From the NCBI GenBank assembly GCA_000739535.1, contig DF820468.1, positions 235,685 to 299,684 of the forward strand: a stretch of DNA of 64,000 bases, read 5' to 3'. This DNA is from Candidatus Vecturithrix granuli. GTDB lineage: Bacteria > Moduliflexota > Moduliflexia > Moduliflexales > Moduliflexaceae. Positions within the stretch are counted from its first letter, which is position 1, and each line of letters opens with the position of its first letter. The position numbers and the translations under genes were made by a program. The notes under the pieces were generated by a model, which was not told the DNA's origin, made no database searches, and worked only from the letters and a program-made list of their open reading frames with translations. Shown piece after piece: positions 5,915 to 29,621 of the stretch.

Positions 5915-6715
5915 TTACAAAAACACTTCAGGTTCTTTTCTGGCCTGACAGGTGGTATGTAAGCGATTCACAATATTGAGCATGATCTCGTTTTGTACAG
6001 AGCGTGCCTGCGCCGGACAAATTTTGATACAGGCGCAGCAGTGAGTGCAGATATTTTCATCCGATGTCGCCGGATTTTCCGTGGCAATGGCGTTGACAGG
6101 GCAGATGTGTGCACACTTTCCGCACAGGGTACAGAGCGAAATATTTGTTACCGGAGCCATGGGAGGAAGTGTTCCAGGATCGCGATAGGGAAAATTACCC
6201 GGCACTGTCAGAGGCTTAATGGCAGCAATCGTTTCAATCTGTTGAAGTTTCTCCCGGATTTTCGCGCCAAAGGCTCTGGCGTGATGGCGATCTTGCGTAT
6301 CCGGTCTGCCGTGTGCAATAGGTTTCTGTTCCGAAGAATAGGAATGTTCGCCGATAAAAGCCCCGCCAGCAATCGGCATAAACCCGGATTGTACGGCAAG
6401 ATCGCGTAATTCCCGCAGGGCATCTTCGTATGCCCGGTTACCATAGACCGCCACGAGTACTGCCAGCGTATTGCGCGCCCTGAACGTGGCAAAATGTTCT
6501 GCTGCGACCTTTGCAATCCTGCCAACATACACCGGCGCGGCTAAAATTACCAATTCATCCTGAAACACAGGCATCGGCGCTGTTCTGCTGCCTGGCAGCG
6601 TACAATCAAGATGCTGAACCTGCTCTGCTTTTATGCCTTTGGTGATTTCTTTGACAATGGCTCTGGTTGTCGCGGTTGGCGAAAAATAGACGAGTTTGAC
6701 AGTCTGTACTTTCAT
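5915..6715 (-). CDS. EFR1-like flavodoxin/ferredoxin fusion protein
   Basis: 266 residues from the ATG at 6715, taken because an upstream in-frame start would overlap the preceding gene. The N-terminal half is flavodoxin-like, with the FMN phosphate loop YFSPTATTR near residue 10. The C-terminal half has two [4Fe-4S] motifs of the CxxCxxCxxxCP type, CTLCGKCAHICP and CTHCCACIKICP, followed by PAQARS. Such proteins are cytosolic electron carriers of anaerobes with no fixed partner. The gene follows the acetyltransferase gene by 13 bp, so the two are probably co-transcribed. Assignment to family is solid; the redox partner is unknown. Confidence 0.9.
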   Translation of the reverse strand: MKVQTVKLVYFSPTATTRAIVKEITKGIKAEQVQHLDCTLPGSRTAPMPVFQDELVILAAPVYVGRIAKVAAEHFATFRARNTLAVLVAVYGNRAYEDALRELRDLAVQSGFMPIAGGAFIGEHSYSSEQKPIAHGRPDTQDRHHARAFGAKIREKLQQIETIAAIKPLTVPGNFPYRDPGTLPPMAPVTNISLCTLCGKCAHICPVNAIATENPATSDENICTHCCACIKICPAQARSVQNEIMLNIVNRLHTTCQARKEPEVFL

Positions 6716-23172: not shown

Positions 23173-23206
23173 AGAAATCCGGGTTTTGACAAAAACCCGG
23201 GTTCTT
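23173..23206. repeat. CCGGGTTTTGACAAAAACCCGG hairpin
   Basis: GAAATCCGGGTTTTGAC with inverted AAAAACCCGGGTTCTT, four bases after the permease stop codon; the next gene's SD follows directly. Confidence 0.75.
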
Positions 23207-23224
23207 ACATGGAGGAGCGATGCT

Positions 23225-24748
23225 ATGAAAATGGAAAATGGGCGTTTTATCTTGTACGGCAACGCCTTAAGCGAATCTCATTCACAGAAAGCCATCAAAT
23301 GGCAAAACATGTTTATTAAAAAATTCAACTACGATCCGAACGAACGCTATACGCTGAGTCTGGAAGAAAATCCATATTTAGGCCCGATTTTTGGCTTAAA
23401 GAATATTGTGCGCAGCGACAAGGGGGAACCGATCAGCAAGGAAAATACCGTGATTTGCAGCACGATCCGTATGGGGTTCGGTCATTATCGTATTGCTATG
23501 GCCGGGGCCTCCTGCGCCAAAGCCATGGGATTCACGCCCTATTGGCTTGATCTGCTGGCGATTCCGGGCATCACGACCGATATTATCAACTATTGTAACA
23601 CCTGGTATAGCAAATTTTCACGCATCTCGCAGCGCAGCAAATTTTTCAATAAATATGTGTGGGAATCGGTCACCACGGGCGAACCGACCCTGCCGGGTTT
23701 ATCTTTCCTGCTCAATAATTGGATCGTGGGCTGGCCCTGGCGTTTTTTAAAAACCAATGTCAAAGATTGTAAGATGAGCGAACTGTTTCGGAATTTACAT
23801 CAGGCGTTGCCGTCGGATATGCCAGTTTTGACGGCGCACATGTGGAACTGCATGGGCGCGGTGGCGGGCGGCATGACGAACGTGGTGGACATGATGTTCG
23901 ATAACTGGCCGATGGCTTTTCAACTAACCGAAGGCGCGAAACATGGCGTACAATCTCCCTCCGGCTATTACGGCTTCCGCGCCATGCGCGGGTTTGATGA
24001 ACATGGCAAGATTATGAAGCCGACGCCCCCTGATGCCATTTATTACGTCGGCCATCATGTGGATCATGAACTGGTGGAAAATATCGAAGGTGATTGCGAA
24101 GCTCGGCTGCGGCGTATGCATAACCATGAACCGCGCCGTTTTATGTTGACCATGGGCGGCGCGGGCGCACAGCGCGAACTGTTTAAAGCGATGATCGAGC
24201 ATTGCATCCCGCTGATCAAGCAGGATAAAGTGACCTTGTTTGTGAATCTGGGGGATCACAAAGATAACTGGACCTGGTTGGAAACAGAACTTGCCGGGTA
24301 TAAAGAAATGCTACACACACATTTCACCTGGGAGGATACACAAGCCTTTGCAGATCAAATTCGAGTTCAGGCCGCCAATGGGCTGCATGTGTTCTTGCAC
24401 GATAACATCTTCCACGCAGTTTATGCGACCAACTATCTCATGCGGGTTGTGGATGTCATGATCACCAAACCGAGCGAGTTAGCGTTTTATCCTGTGCCCA
24501 AAATCTTCAATGAGCGCGTCGGCGGGCATGAAATGTGGGGCGCGATTCGCGGCGCGGAACTCGGCGACGGCACGGTGGAAGTGCGCACCATTCCGCAAAC
24601 CCTGCAAGCCATTGATTTGCTGACCGATGCCAGTGATCTGTTAGCGATGTACTGTGACTGTATCGTCAAAAATAAACGCATCGGTGTCTATGACGGCGCG
24701 TATAAGTGCGTCGAACTCGCCACCGGCAAAAAATTCGAACGCAAATAA
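23225..24748 (+). CDS. GT-B-like putative glycosyltransferase
   Basis: 507 residues from the ATG at 23225, which has GGAGGAG 7 nt ahead. An N-terminal nucleotide-fold-like motif CSTIRMGFGHYRIAMAGAS near residue 96 and a second Rossmann-like start FMLTMGGAGAQRELFKA near 316 are reminiscent of MurG and monogalactosyldiacylglycerol synthases. The part between is large and aromatic-rich, and a C-terminal segment DVMITKPSELAFYPVPKI resembles the acceptor/nucleotide end of GT-B enzymes. I do not recognise the exact family. Its position between a sugar importer and a GT4 gene hints at glycolipid or storage-glycan synthesis, but this is inference. Confidence 0.5.
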   Translation: MKMENGRFILYGNALSESHSQKAIKWQNMFIKKFNYDPNERYTLSLEENPYLGPIFGLKNIVRSDKGEPISKENTVICSTIRMGFGHYRIAMAGASCAKAMGFTPYWLDLLAIPGITTDIINYCNTWYSKFSRISQRSKFFNKYVWESVTTGEPTLPGLSFLLNNWIVGWPWRFLKTNVKDCKMSELFRNLHQALPSDMPVLTAHMWNCMGAVAGGMTNVVDMMFDNWPMAFQLTEGAKHGVQSPSGYYGFRAMRGFDEHGKIMKPTPPDAIYYVGHHVDHELVENIEGDCEARLRRMHNHEPRRFMLTMGGAGAQRELFKAMIEHCIPLIKQDKVTLFVNLGDHKDNWTWLETELAGYKEMLHTHFTWEDTQAFADQIRVQAANGLHVFLHDNIFHAVYATNYLMRVVDVMITKPSELAFYPVPKIFNERVGGHEMWGAIRGAELGDGTVEVRTIPQTLQAIDLLTDASDLLAMYCDCIVKNKRIGVYDGAYKCVELATGKKFERK

Positions 24749-24796: not shown

Positions 24797-25975
24797 ATGA
24801 AGATTGGAATTTTTACGGACTGTTATTTCCCTACCAAAAACGGCATTTCTACCTCGATTGTCCATCTGAAAGAAGGATTGGAACAACAGGGCCATCAGGT
24901 CATGATCTTGACCGTCAAGTATCCGCACTATGAAAAACAAGAACCCACAATTTATCGGTTTCCCTCATTTCCCTTCAACTCCATGCTGGAACTACGGGTA
25001 GGGCTGGCAGCGCAACGCACGCTGAACCGGATCGTGCAAACACGACAGTTTGACATTCTGCACACCCACACAGAATTTAGTCTGGGTTGGTCTGCCAAAC
25101 GTGCAGCCCGAACCCTGTACCTTCCCATTGTCCATACGGTGCACACCATGTATCAGGACTATCGTCATTATCTCTGGGGCGGGAAATGTGTGTCTCCAAA
25201 CATGATTCAATGGTTCTTCACCCGATTTTTGGCCGGTTACGATGCGGTGATCTGCCCTTCACAAAAAATGCAAGCATACCTGTCAGGCTTTCTCCCCGCA
25301 CTGAAAACGGTTGTGATCGGCAATGGCGTGTCCCAAACTCGATTTTCGCCGAATCGGTTGACAACAGAAGAACGCGCACGAATCCGCGGCAATGTGGGGC
25401 TCTGCGCTTCAGACAAGATGATCCTTTTTGTCGGTCGTTTAGCTCAGGAGAAGCGAGTTTTGGAACTCTTGCGTGTGTTGGCTTCGCTTTTACAACAGCA
25501 TCCGCACTATAAAATCGTGTTTGTCGGCGACGGCCCCTTGCATCAGCAAATACAATCGTTGGCTCGAAAACACGCTATCGCCCAGCAGGTGATTTTGACA
25601 GGCTACATACCCTGGGAGAACATGTATAACATTTATGCCCTGGCGGATTTGTTTGTGACCGCTTCGCTTAGCGAGGTGCATCCCATGACCCTGATTGAAG
25701 CCGCAATGTGCGGATTACCGATTGTCGTCCGGCGTGACAAGAGTTATACGGATATCGTGCAAGATGATTGCAACGGCTGCCTGGCTGACACAGATGGACA
25801 ACTTGCCGAGCAGGTCGCCGCGCTCCTGCAAGATGATGTGAAACGACATATATTCTCACAACACGCTCTGAGTGTCGCCGAAAAATTGACGAGTGAAAAA
25901 TATGTTGAACGCTGTGAAGCCTTATATAAGGATGTTATTCAGAGAAAAATTCTTACCACAGATACCCACAGATAG
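24797..25975 (+). CDS. Glycosyltransferase family 4
   Basis: 392 residues from the ATG at 24797. Begins KIGIFTDCYFPTKNGISTSI, the GT4 start typical of diacylglycerol glucosyltransferases and similar cytosolic-face enzymes. The C-terminal Rossmann half has FVGRLAQEKRVLELL near residue 213 and the retaining-enzyme E-x7-E motif in SEVHPMTLIEAAMCGLP near 292. Donor probably UDP- or GDP-sugar. The close relation to glycolipid synthases (alpha-monoglucosyl-diacylglycerol type) is my reading of the N-terminus. It follows the GT-B-like gene by 48 bp and likely shares its transcript. Confidence 0.88.
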   Translation: MKIGIFTDCYFPTKNGISTSIVHLKEGLEQQGHQVMILTVKYPHYEKQEPTIYRFPSFPFNSMLELRVGLAAQRTLNRIVQTRQFDILHTHTEFSLGWSAKRAARTLYLPIVHTVHTMYQDYRHYLWGGKCVSPNMIQWFFTRFLAGYDAVICPSQKMQAYLSGFLPALKTVVIGNGVSQTRFSPNRLTTEERARIRGNVGLCASDKMILFVGRLAQEKRVLELLRVLASLLQQHPHYKIVFVGDGPLHQQIQSLARKHAIAQQVILTGYIPWENMYNIYALADLFVTASLSEVHPMTLIEAAMCGLPIVVRRDKSYTDIVQDDCNGCLADTDGQLAEQVAALLQDDVKRHIFSQHALSVAEKLTSEKYVERCEALYKDVIQRKILTTDTHR

Positions 25976-26145
25976 ACACAGATATTTTTGACATGTTTCA
26001 CAGACACCCCGGTTGTCCGAGAGGTCACCTGGGGTATTCCCTCCTGTCATGAGCAATACCCGGTGACTCACTATGTTCGACAACCGGGATTTCTGAATCA
26101 TGCCATATTTTTCTGTTATCAGTGTCCATCTGTGTATATCTGTGG
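25956..26145. repeat. Nested 190-bp palindromic element
   Basis: Outer arms CCACAGATACCCACAGATAG and its inverted counterpart ATATCTGTGG; inner arms CCCGGTTGTC/GACAACCGGG and GGTATT/AATACC. It has no ORF. The form is that of a MITE-like or REP-like insertion. Confidence 0.7.
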
Positions 26146-26203
26146 TTCAATATATTGACAGAATACAAAAAAGGGTATATGCTATAACAAAAGGAATCAG
26201 GCA

Positions 26204-26257: not shown

Positions 26258-26665
26258 ATGGGACTGAAACAGGGCGAATTTACGCATAACAAGCTGGAGC
26301 AGAGCCAACTCACTGCAACCAAAAATACCGATGAACCGGAACGGCGGCGTTTTCTCTACTGCACAGCATGTCATGCGCCGATTACCCGCCAGACCGATCG
26401 GATCAGCATTAATGAACAGCATGAACATGTGTTTGCCAATCCGCACGGCTATATTTATCACATCGGCTGTTTTGCCCAGGCTCAGGGCTGTGTGAGAGCC
26501 GGTGAAGAAACCGATTTTTTTTCCTGGTTTCCCGGTTATGCCTGGCAAATTGCCCTGTGCGGACGTTGTCTGGCGTTTTTAGGCTGGGCCTTCCATTCCT
26601 CGCAATCGCAATTTTGGGGCCTGATTTTGGATAAATTGATCGCTGGTGAAGAGAAAATATCTTGA
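26258..26665 (+). CDS. Stand-alone CULT (cereblon-like) domain protein
   Basis: 135 residues from the ATG at 26258 (GGTGGAG just ahead; a GTG at 26249 is possible). The protein is essentially one CULT domain: zinc pair CTAC (Cys35, Cys38), a GYIYHIGCF segment, then FSWFPGYAWQIALCGRCLAF and LGWAF. Trp90, Trp96 and Trp110 have the 6- and 14-residue spacing of human cereblon's aromatic cage (Trp380/386/400) and of the Magnetospirillum single-domain homologue; Phe112 matches cereblon Phe402. The second zinc pair is Cys101/Cys104. Such proteins bind uridine, thalidomide and cyclic-imide ligands in vitro; their bacterial role is unknown. clpS and clpA follow directly on the same strand, suggesting a link to protein degradation. 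Confidence 0.88.
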   Translation: MGLKQGEFTHNKLEQSQLTATKNTDEPERRRFLYCTACHAPITRQTDRISINEQHEHVFANPHGYIYHIGCFAQAQGCVRAGEETDFFSWFPGYAWQIALCGRCLAFLGWAFHSSQSQFWGLILDKLIAGEEKIS

Positions 26666-26753
26666 CTCATTGACAGCAAGAGAACTTGTTGTAGTTTAAG
26701 GAACTACATGAATAAAGACTAAGCAAGAATTGACTTTTTATAGAGATACAACT

Positions 26754-27068
26754 ATGAGTGAATTTGATTATGAATTTGACAGCGATGTCGTCACAGAAGA
26801 AGATATAGAGGTGCGCGAACCGCGACTCTATCATGTGATGCTCTATAATGATAATTATACCACGATGGATTTTGTCGTGTATGTGCTCGAAACGATCTTC
26901 CATCATTCCGGTCCGGCCGCAGAGAAAATCATGCTCGATGTGCATCAGCGCGGGAAAGGGGTGGCCGGTACGTATCCGCGCGACATTGCCGAAACCAAAG
27001 CTCTGCAAACCCGCAACCTGGCTCAGGAACATCATTTTCCATTAAAATGCGTCGCAGAGCCTGTATAA
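26754..27068 (+). CDS. clpS: ATP-dependent Clp protease adaptor ClpS
   Basis: 104 residues, the normal ClpS size. An acidic flexible N-terminus (DSDVVTEEDIEVREP), then YHVMLYNDNYTTMDFVVYVL, which holds the Asn-Asp pair binding the substrate alpha-amino group, then VHQRGKGVAGTYPRDIAETK. ClpS delivers N-degron proteins with bulky first residues to ClpA. The gene lies 88 bp after the CULT gene and 165 bp before clpA. The ATG at 26754 was preferred to one eight codons upstream because the resulting protein has the usual ClpS N-terminus. Confidence 0.95.
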   Translation: MSEFDYEFDSDVVTEEDIEVREPRLYHVMLYNDNYTTMDFVVYVLETIFHHSGPAAEKIMLDVHQRGKGVAGTYPRDIAETKALQTRNLAQEHHFPLKCVAEPV

Positions 27069-27086
27069 CAATGATATGATCGAACA

Positions 27087-27228
27087 TAAAGAAACTCACG
27101 CAAAGCCGCAAAGAACGCAAAGGTTATTATTTATAACAGGCGACAGGTTTTCGGTGCAAAAGAATAATCAAGGACATGTTCGCCTTTACACTCTTTGCGA
27201 CTTCGCGTCTTTGCGTGAGACTTTTCGT
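27087..27228. repeat. Inverted repeat element between clpS and clpA
   Basis: CTCACGCAAAGCCGCAAAG near 27094 and its inverted counterpart CTTTGCGTCTTTGCGTGAG-like arm at about 27191-27222 enclose about 70 bp. The family CGCAAAGACGCGAAG is common in environmental bacterial genomes; diverged copies are at 55892 and 63535. It ends a few bases before the clpA start codon. Confidence 0.7.
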
Positions 27229-27233
27229 GTGTA

Positions 27234-29621
27234 ATGAGTCGTCAGGAAGTCCAATCTGTCGTTGACACGGCTATTCGTGAAGCTATTTTGCGACGACATG
27301 AATATATTACCGTTGAACATTTATTGTACAGCATTTTGCAGCACGACACCGGCGTCACGATCATCAGTGCATGCGGCGGCGATGTGGATCGGCTGTTAAA
27401 ACAATTATTGCACTTTTTTGCAGAACACATCCCCGAGCTTCCGGTGCTTTCGGTATGGCAGAACGATTCTGCTGCTGAAAGTGAGAGAGAGACGGAAGTA
27501 GAGGAACCCTCGCCTGTTCAAACCCTGGGATTCCGCCGGGTATTGGAACGCGCGGTGAATCAGGGGATGTCGTCAGGCCGGCAGGATTTGGATGTCGGCG
27601 ATCTCCTGGCCGGAATATTTTTGGAACAGGATTCTCACGCCGTTTATCTGCTCAAAAAACAGGGGATCACGCGCTTAGACATTCTTAATTACATTTCTCA
27701 TGGCATGACGAAAGATGACGATGAGTTATCCCTTGCGAAATTTGATGAGCCCGGCGAACTTGAAGAATCCGAAGAGGAGGAAGACGCCTTTTCTCGTGAG
27801 CGAACGCCGCAGAAAGGCTTCAAGCTGGAATCCTTTGCCGTGAATCTAACGGAGTTAGCGCGGCAGGGGAAACTTGATCCGCTCATCGGACGCGAACGTG
27901 AAATGAAGCGAGTGACGCAGGTGCTCTGCCGTCGTCTGAAACATAATCCTGTGTTAGTCGGTGAACCCGGAGTGGGGAAAACCGCGATTGTCGAAGGATT
28001 AGCGCAAAACATTGTGAAAAGTGCGGCGCCAAAAATCTTGCACAACGTGGAGATTTTCGCTCTGGATATGGGCGCGCTCTTAGCTGGTACAAAATTTCGA
28101 GGTCAGTTCGAACAACGCTTAAAAGCTGTGCTGAAAGCGATTAACAAATATAACCGCAAAGCCGCTTCCGGCCTGGGGGCGATCCTGTTTGTGGATGAAA
28201 TTCATACCATTGTGGGCGCAGGCGCGACGACCGGCACGTCAATTGACGCTTCGGGATTGCTGAAACACGCGCTTCACGCTGACAATTTGCGTTGTATCGG
28301 TGCAACCACGCATGATGAATATCGCCGTCATTTCGAACACGACCGCGCCTTAGTGCGCCGCTTTCAAAAAATTGACATTACTGAAGCCTCGGTGGAAGAT
28401 TCTATCGCCATCTTACACGGTCTGCGCAACCGGTTTGAAGAATATTACCAGGTTCAATACACAGACCCGGCTTTAGAAAGTGCGGCGCAACTGGCGTTTC
28501 GACATATTGCGGAACGTTTTATGCCGGATAAAGCGATTGATGTGATTGATGAGGTCGGCGCGTTGAATCAAATCCGCGAACCGGAACAACAAAAAGCCGT
28601 GCTGGATGTGGCCGATGTGGAAGAGGTGGTCGGCCAGATTGCACACATTCCGGATCTCAATCCTGGCGAATCTGAACGCGACCAACTGGCGGTGCTTGAA
28701 CGCAAAATGAAGGAGAAAGTTTTCGGTCAGAATCGCCCGATTGAGGCCGTGTCCGCTGCCATCAGATTATCTCGCGCCGGATTGAATCTGCCCGATAAGC
28801 CGGTCGGCGCATTTCTATTTGCCGGGCCAACCGGCGTGGGCAAAACCGAAGTGGCGCGGCAACTGGCTCTGGTTCTGGGAGTCGCTTTTAAACGCTTTGA
28901 CATGAGCGAATACATGGAAAAGCACACCGTATCGCGCTTAATCGGCGCGCCGCCGGGCTATATCGGCTACGACCAGGGGGGACTCTTAACCGAAGCGATC
29001 CGCAAAAATCCGCACTGTGTGCTGCTGCTGGATGAAATTGAAAAAGCGCATATTGATCTGTTTGATATTCTGCTGCAAGTGATGGATCATGCCACGCTGA
29101 CCGATAACACCGGACGCGAAGCGGATTTTCGCAACGTGATTCTGATTATGACCACGAATGCCGGCGCGCGCGAAATGGGCAAACGTATCATTGGTTTCGA
29201 TCAATCCATCGATCTTTCAGCGAGCCATCACGCGATTGAAAAACTGTTCAGCCCGGAGTTTCGCAATCGTCTGACCGAGATCGTCTATTTTGACCCTCTA
29301 TCGCAACAGATTATGATCCAAATCGTGGGAAAATTTATTGATGAACTGAATGGGCAGTTGGCTGCGCAGGAAGTCCGTCTGGAACTTGATGATGCCGCCA
29401 AACTCTGGCTGGCAGAGCACGGCTATGATGAAATGTACGGCGCGCGTCCGCTGGCGCGGTTGATTCAAACCACCATCCGTCAGCCCTTAGCCGAAGAAAT
29501 CTTATTCGGCCAGTTGCAAAACGGCGGAGTAGCACGAGTAACCCTGGAAGATGAGAAGTTGGTAATTCACGCGGGCACTTCAGCGTTATGCCAGCCTGCT
29601 AACAATTCCCTGAGAGGATAA
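27234..29621 (+). CDS. clpA: ATP-dependent Clp protease ATP-binding subunit ClpA
   Basis: 795 residues. Clp N-domain at 1-155 (ClpS docking site), acidic linker 160-195, first AAA+ with Walker A GEPGVGKT at 243-250 and Walker B ILFVDEIH at 317-324, then second AAA+ with Walker A GPTGVGKT at 531-538 and Walker B VLLLDEIEKA from 596. There is no ClpB-type middle coiled coil. An IIGF loop near 662 matches the IGL/IGF tripeptide that docks ClpP, so it unfolds proteins into ClpP, whose gene is not in the window. No SD is visible; the start codon lies right after an inverted repeat. Confidence 0.96.
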   Translation: MSRQEVQSVVDTAIREAILRRHEYITVEHLLYSILQHDTGVTIISACGGDVDRLLKQLLHFFAEHIPELPVLSVWQNDSAAESERETEVEEPSPVQTLGFRRVLERAVNQGMSSGRQDLDVGDLLAGIFLEQDSHAVYLLKKQGITRLDILNYISHGMTKDDDELSLAKFDEPGELEESEEEEDAFSRERTPQKGFKLESFAVNLTELARQGKLDPLIGREREMKRVTQVLCRRLKHNPVLVGEPGVGKTAIVEGLAQNIVKSAAPKILHNVEIFALDMGALLAGTKFRGQFEQRLKAVLKAINKYNRKAASGLGAILFVDEIHTIVGAGATTGTSIDASGLLKHALHADNLRCIGATTHDEYRRHFEHDRALVRRFQKIDITEASVEDSIAILHGLRNRFEEYYQVQYTDPALESAAQLAFRHIAERFMPDKAIDVIDEVGALNQIREPEQQKAVLDVADVEEVVGQIAHIPDLNPGESERDQLAVLERKMKEKVFGQNRPIEAVSAAIRLSRAGLNLPDKPVGAFLFAGPTGVGKTEVARQLALVLGVAFKRFDMSEYMEKHTVSRLIGAPPGYIGYDQGGLLTEAIRKNPHCVLLLDEIEKAHIDLFDILLQVMDHATLTDNTGREADFRNVILIMTTNAGAREMGKRIIGFDQSIDLSASHHAIEKLFSPEFRNRLTEIVYFDPLSQQIMIQIVGKFIDELNGQLAAQEVRLELDDAAKLWLAEHGYDEMYGARPLARLIQTTIRQPLAEEILFGQLQNGGVARVTLEDEKLVIHAGTSALCQPANNSLRG

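What the first reader, a model, noticed from the sequence alone, without database searches (positions are those of the whole stretch)
26258..29621. Cereblon-like CULT protein encoded directly before clpS and clpA
The sequence shows a 135-residue single CULT domain with both zinc pairs and the three cage tryptophans at cereblon spacing (90/96/110), followed on the same strand by clpS and clpA. Human cereblon recruits proteins bearing C-terminal cyclic imides for degradation, and ClpS recruits proteins by their N-terminal residue. Inference: in this organism the CULT protein may be a second Clp adaptor that recognises aged proteins with C-terminal cyclic imides and hands them to ClpA-ClpP, a bacterial counterpart of the cereblon pathway. 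I know of no described CULT-Clp link.
Basis: partly seen in the sequence, partly recalled or inferred. Interest (0 to 1): 0.88.

Follow-up and report, generated by a model that had tools for sequence, protein, structure and literature searches.

The report
Bacterial cereblon-like gene beside clpS-clpA
A small bacterial relative of the drug-binding part of human cereblon really does sit just before the genes for the ClpS-ClpA protein-destruction machine, but this neighbourhood was found in only one narrow lineage, so a shared job in clearing damaged proteins is an open and testable idea rather than a shown one.

Summary
Window 26258-26665 encodes a single-domain CULT protein (phmmer to Magnetospirillum cereblon MsCI4 2e-23, to human cereblon about 1e-11; AlphaFold domain pLDDT about 97; Foldseek to MsCI4 2e-11). 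It is followed on the same strand by genuine clpS and clpA. A scan of 84,980 species genomes gave 65 CULT loci. Exactly one, L004, repeats CULT-clpS-clpA, with 60/80/73% identity, a 21-bp CULT-clpS gap and a different upstream gene. L004 is a stray contig in a Chloroflexota bin and is the window's closest relative. The other 64 loci, and the 30 loci from a further Myxococcota survey (28 of them new), lack clpS. The same-family genome G001 keeps clpS-clpA but has no CULT.

At 60-80% CULT identity, 19 of 25 locus pairs keep some neighbour, including unrelated ones, so the retained adjacency is weak evidence. ClpS and PIMT are near-universal in these clades, so their co-occurrence says nothing. 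The best reading is a member of the known bacterial CULT family, with an intact imide-binding cage, probably co-transcribed with clpSA in one lineage. A ClpAP adaptor role is possible (about 0.2) but unproven. Side observation: many bacterial CULT proteins carry a disordered N-terminal tail with a recurrent short hydrophobic/basic motif.

The parts
26258..26665 (+). Single-domain CULT (cereblon thalidomide-binding-domain family) protein, 135 aa; CxxC at 35/38 and 101/104, cage W90, W96, W110 plus F112; disordered N-terminal tail of about 25-30 aa containing the weak motif MGLKQG
26754..27068 (+). clpS, N-degron adaptor of ClpA; aligned pocket segment NDNYTTM against E. coli NDDYTPM, and the conserved VH segment
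27234..29621 (+). clpA, two AAA+ domains, Clp N-domain, ClpP-binding-type loop IGF
26155..26183 (+). Sigma-70-like promoter match TTGACA-17-TATGCT upstream of CULT; none found on the + strand between CULT and clpS. Consensus match only, count within chance
25956..26145 (+). Dispersed-type repeats (ATCTGTGNNTATCTGTGG, inverted copies) separating the upstream glycosyltransferase gene from CULT
27084..27230 (.). Inverted repeat (30-nt arms, 77% complementary) in the clpS-clpA gap

Best explanation
The gene encodes a free-standing bacterial CULT protein of the MsCI4 type. A zinc-pinned beta-tent domain carries a Trp-Trp-Trp-Phe cage expected to bind cyclic imides, such as C-terminal aspartimide or glutarimide ends of damaged proteins, or related small ligands such as uracil-type rings. 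In this one lineage it lies at the head of the clpS-clpA cluster and is probably co-transcribed with it. Its most likely role is as a reader of imide-bearing molecules acting in damage or stress proteostasis. Direct delivery to ClpA is a further, unshown step. Shown: family, fold, conserved cage, gene order, one recurrence. Inferred: ligand, co-transcription, role.
For: Sequence and fold match to MsCI4 and cereblon. Invariant zinc and cage residues in 66 proteins. Purifying selection on the domain between window and L004: pN 0.20 against pS 0.67, next to 0.12/0.75 for ClpS and 0.16/0.77 for ClpA. Same strand and order in L004 with a 21-bp CULT-clpS gap. Window and L004 CULT are sisters at 99/93 support. 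The only + strand promoter-like match before clpS lies ahead of CULT. MsCI4 binds thalidomide-type imides and deoxyuridine in crystals (entry titles). Human cereblon reads C-terminal cyclic imides, which PIMT can generate (PMC11974815, PMC13001092), and G000 encodes two full-strength PIMT matches.
Against: No ligand has been shown for this protein. MsCI4's natural ligand in bacteria is not established in the papers read. The 88-bp CULT-clpS gap in the window leaves room for a separate clpS promoter. Across 65 loci no neighbour recurs in more than 3 of 47 CULT clusters, so genome context gives no consistent partner.
Confidence: 0.6

Rival explanations
1. CULT is a second Clp adaptor: it binds proteins ending in a cyclic imide and hands them to ClpAP, possibly docking through its disordered N-terminal tail, as ClpS does for N-degrons.
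For: Operon-like order with clpS and clpA in two related lineages with different upstream genes. Genuine ClpS and ClpA with a ClpP-type loop. An adaptor-like layout of a small folded reader plus a flexible tail with a hydrophobic/basic motif: 13 of 44 non-redundant extensions against 2.4 expected in shuffles, none of 2000 shuffles reaching it, usually 22-24 residues before the domain; the tail is predicted disordered in two proteins.
Against: No clpS near CULT in 64 other scan loci or 30 Myxococcota loci. G001 keeps clpSA without CULT. Neighbour retention at this CULT divergence is common for unrelated genes (19 of 25 pairs). ClpS presence is uninformative: 46 of 50 CULT genomes, but 115 of 120 in one class regardless of CULT. 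No fusion of CULT to AAA+ or protease domains was seen. The motif is weak in the window protein itself.
Confidence: 0.2
2. The adjacency is incidental. CULT is a patchily distributed gene that landed upstream of clpSA in the ancestor of this lineage; it works independently or simply shares a promoter.
For: Very patchy distribution: in a domain-wide sample of 385 genomes only the window's own and one other have CULT; 31 of 377 Myxococcota; none of 300 other Chloroflexota. Neighbours elsewhere are diverse: TauE, CysZ-like, parvulin, sigma factor, BatD, MscS, CorA, FolC-like. The adjacency is absent from the sister genome G001.
Against: The adjacency survived a split deep enough to leave ClpA at 74% identity and replace the upstream gene, and the CULT-clpS gap in L004 is only 21 bp.
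Confidence: 0.35
3. CULT is a small-molecule (uracil, hydantoin or dihydrouracil-like) binding or sensing protein rather than a protein-damage reader.
For: MsCI4 crystallises with deoxyuridine and several lactam or imide compounds. Lupas et al. argue for a widespread ligand rather than a linear motif (PMC4287342).
Against: [quoted passage not shown]). No pyrimidine genes were noticed beside CULT.
Confidence: 0.15

Closest known systems
MsCI4 (Magnetospirillum gryphiswaldense cereblon isoform 4; bacterial CULT family, Lupas et al. 2015, PMC4287342)
   Same: Single CULT domain, two CxxC pairs, three cage tryptophans, about 39-46% identity over the domain, same fold (Foldseek about 2e-11, rmsd about 1-1.5 A)
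   Different: Phe112 in place of Tyr101 in the cage; longer N-terminal tail. Magnetospirillum-type loci have other neighbours, in L043 and L060 a parvulin gene 3 bp upstream, not clpSA
Human cereblon thalidomide-binding domain
   Same: Zinc site, cage spacing, NPHGY and SWFPGYAW segments (human segments from general knowledge; homology)
   Different: No Lon-like domain, no DDB1-binding region, no ubiquitin system
ClpS, adaptor of ClpAP
   Same: Small reader of a chemical feature at a protein end, encoded beside clpA (analogy only for CULT)
   Different: Unrelated fold; ClpS reads N-terminal residues; CULT-ClpA contact not shown

Membership tests
CULT domain family (cereblon / MsCI4 type) | Sequence homology to the CULT core group | tested here: met
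   phmmer 2.1e-23 to MsCI4, about 1e-11 to human cereblon
CULT domain family (cereblon / MsCI4 type) | Two CxxC zinc pairs and three cage tryptophans at fixed spacing | tested here: met
   C35/C38, C101/C104, W90, W96, W110 invariant in 66 sequences
CULT domain family (cereblon / MsCI4 type) | Beta-tent fold | tested here: met
   AlphaFold domain pLDDT about 97, Foldseek best hits all MsCI4 then cereblon
CULT domain family (cereblon / MsCI4 type) | Binding of thalidomide or cyclic imides | not testable with these tools
   needs purified protein
Clp protease adaptor | Linkage to clp genes conserved across lineages | tested here: not met
   one related contig only; none of 64 other scan loci nor 30 Myxococcota loci; missing in G001
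Clp protease adaptor | Binds the Clp unfoldase N-domain or pore and delivers substrate | not testable with these tools
   no complex modelling or biochemistry available here
Cereblon (CRL4 substrate receptor) | Lon-like domain and DDB1-binding region | tested here: not met
   135-aa single domain with a disordered tail

The most novel reading that the evidence does not exclude
In this lineage CULT is a dedicated ClpAP adaptor for proteins with C-terminal cyclic imides: a bacterial C-degron pathway parallel to cereblon-CRL4, encoded as one operon with the N-degron adaptor ClpS.
Probability: 0.2. Interest if true: 0.9.

Novelty: new member of a known kind. Interest (0 to 1): 0.42.

Why it matters
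The physiological role of bacterial CULT proteins, widely used as stand-ins for the thalidomide target, is not given in the papers read here. A CULT gene at the head of clpSA supplies a concrete partner to test. If the link held, it would give a bacterial ancestor or parallel of the cereblon damage-clearance pathway.

Tried and rejected
(1) CULT-ClpS co-occurrence as support: 46 of 50 CULT genomes have ClpS, but so do 115 of 120 genomes of one CULT-containing class; uninformative. (2) CULT-PIMT co-occurrence: all 80 genomes passed the family cut-off, mostly with strong matches regardless of CULT; uninformative. (3) L004 as a true Chloroflexota occurrence: the bin's RpoB is about 54% identical to the window genome's while ClpA is 73-74%, and 300 other Chloroflexota lack CULT; taken as a mis-binned contig. 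(4) A conserved neighbour common to CULT loci: none in more than 3 of 47 clusters. (5) CULT fusions to Clp or protease domains: none seen. (6) In-frame TGA codons in some Myxococcota hits: in the three loci that could be read they lie outside the domain, so selenocysteine was dropped. (7) Plasmid and viral collections: no CULT. (8) Homology of 5' regions between window, L004 and G001: not above shuffles. (9) Papers linking CULT with ClpS or Clp protease: none in the held library.

Full report
Observation. The window lies in an 8.38-Mb genome (G000, contig C16 of 456,683 bases). It belongs to a group with very few held relatives: one other genome of its family, two of its order, and then only 'same domain'. 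The phylum was not determined. ORF 26258-26665 is a 135-aa CULT protein: MsCI4 2.1e-23, human cereblon about 1e-11. clpS (26754-27068) and clpA (27234-29621) are genuine by Pfam, NCBIfam and alignment with E. coli. The CULT gene occurs once in the genome, and so does ClpS.

The protein. In 66 aligned CULT proteins from several phyla, C35, C38, N61, W90, F91, G93, W96, C101, C104, G109, W110 and F119 are invariant. AlphaFold gives a confident beta-tent domain (blocks at 94-98 pLDDT) and a disordered tail for residues 1-25. Foldseek's best matches are MsCI4 crystal structures with thalidomide, other imides and deoxyuridine, then cereblon. F112 corresponds to MsCI4 Tyr101 and makes the cage human-like in composition.

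Recurrence. A pattern-plus-tblastn scan of 84,980 species genomes found 65 CULT loci; it requires exact short motifs, so it is not exhaustive. Only L004 has clpS-clpA after CULT: 60% CULT identity, 80% ClpS, 73% ClpA, with gaps of 21 and 167 bp and an NADH:flavin oxidoreductase gene upstream instead of the window's glycosyltransferase. L050 has a ClpA-like ORF about 7 kb away and no clpS within reach. Some of the 65 loci are short contigs; 53 have at least two called genes on each side. L004 lies in a 'Chloroflexi' bin, but that bin's RpoB is far from the window genome's (about 54%) while ClpA places L004 next to the window with G001 outside. 300 other Chloroflexota genomes have no CULT. The contig is therefore most simply a stray from the window's own lineage. 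L004 clpA carries an in-frame TAA at 6495, which may be an assembly error or real.

Absence in the nearest genome. G001 (same family) keeps clpS-clpA (72% and 70% identity by tblastn), but the roughly 460 bp upstream of clpS up to the contig end hold no CULT, and none is found in the genome. G002 and G003 (same order) have a divergent clpS without a nearby clpA match and no CULT. In the Myxococcota, 31 of 377 genomes have CULT; none of the 30 fetched loci (1.5-kb flanks, two of them already in the scan set) shows clpS or clpA.

How strong is the adjacency? I measured how often two CULT loci share a homologous neighbour within two genes on the same side. Pairs at 80% or more CULT identity share one in 6 of 6 cases, 60-80% in 19 of 25, 52-60% in 4 of 68, and 48-52% in 1 of 166. 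The window/L004 pair sits at 60%, at the edge of the zone in which retained neighbours are the rule, and those neighbours include a CysZ-like transporter, a parvulin and a DUF362 protein. The CULT-clpS retention is therefore compatible with an operon under selection but adds little specific support. The CULT domain itself is under purifying selection (pN 0.20, pS 0.67).

Co-transcription. All three genes share a strand. A TTGACA-17-TATGCT match lies upstream of CULT and no + strand match lies between CULT and clpS, but the number of such matches is within chance. In L004 the CULT-clpS gap is only 21 bp. Co-transcription is likely but inferred.

Co-occurrence controls. ClpS is present in 46 of 50 CULT genomes but is near-universal in one of their classes (115 of 120), so this is not evidence. 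PIMT, the enzyme reported to generate C-terminal cyclic imides (PMC11974815, PMC13001092), is present at full strength twice in G000, so a precondition of the imide idea is met; it is nearly universal elsewhere too.

A side observation. Many bacterial CULT proteins have a 25-60-residue N-terminal extension with a short motif of two hydrophobics, Leu or Phe, then Lys or Arg (HLLLRNK, VILFKK, HYWFKK, PLLLLREK), usually 22-24 residues before the domain, followed by a charged linker. It occurs in 13 of 44 non-redundant extensions against 2.4 in shuffles, none of 2000 shuffles reaching 13. The pattern was chosen after looking at the sequences, and start codons were picked by rule, so the figure is descriptive. 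AlphaFold leaves it disordered both in the window protein and in a strong-motif member. It could be a docking motif for an unknown partner. L004 has LFCLKPG and the window only a weak MGLKQG.

Verdict. Observation confirmed. The most likely reading is a CULT protein with an intact imide cage in a lineage-specific clpSA cluster. The adaptor hypothesis stays open at about 0.2. No described CULT-Clp link was found in the library searched.

Noticed in passing
L010:7944-8357, L013, L011, L012, L025, L018, L019, L017, L032, L036 (CULT genes); window 26258-26290: Recurrent short motif (two hydrophobics, Leu/Phe, Lys/Arg) in the disordered N-terminal tail of many bacterial CULT proteins, mostly 22-24 residues before the domain; possible docking motif, weak in the window protein.
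   Followed up: partly
L043:7290-8306 and L060:7290-8306: In Magnetospirillum-type genomes a double parvulin-type PPIase gene ends 3 bp before the CULT gene, a different proteostasis-flavoured neighbour.
   Followed up: partly
L004:6495-6497: In-frame TAA in the second AAA+ domain of clpA in the only other CULT-clpS-clpA contig; could be an assembly error or a real interruption.
   Followed up: no
window 25956-26145 and 27084-27230; L004:4446-4507: Different palindromic or dispersed-type repeats occupy the gaps around CULT-clpS-clpA in the two genomes.
   Followed up: partly
window 23186-24748: TTG-started ORF matching DUF6937 and DUF6938 (Pfam 1e-96 and 2e-103) between a sugar ABC transporter and a family-4 glycosyltransferase.
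   Followed up: no
G001 (whole genome): The same-family genome without CULT also lacks a full-strength PIMT match (best 3e-5), unlike G000 (two) and G002/G003.
   Followed up: no
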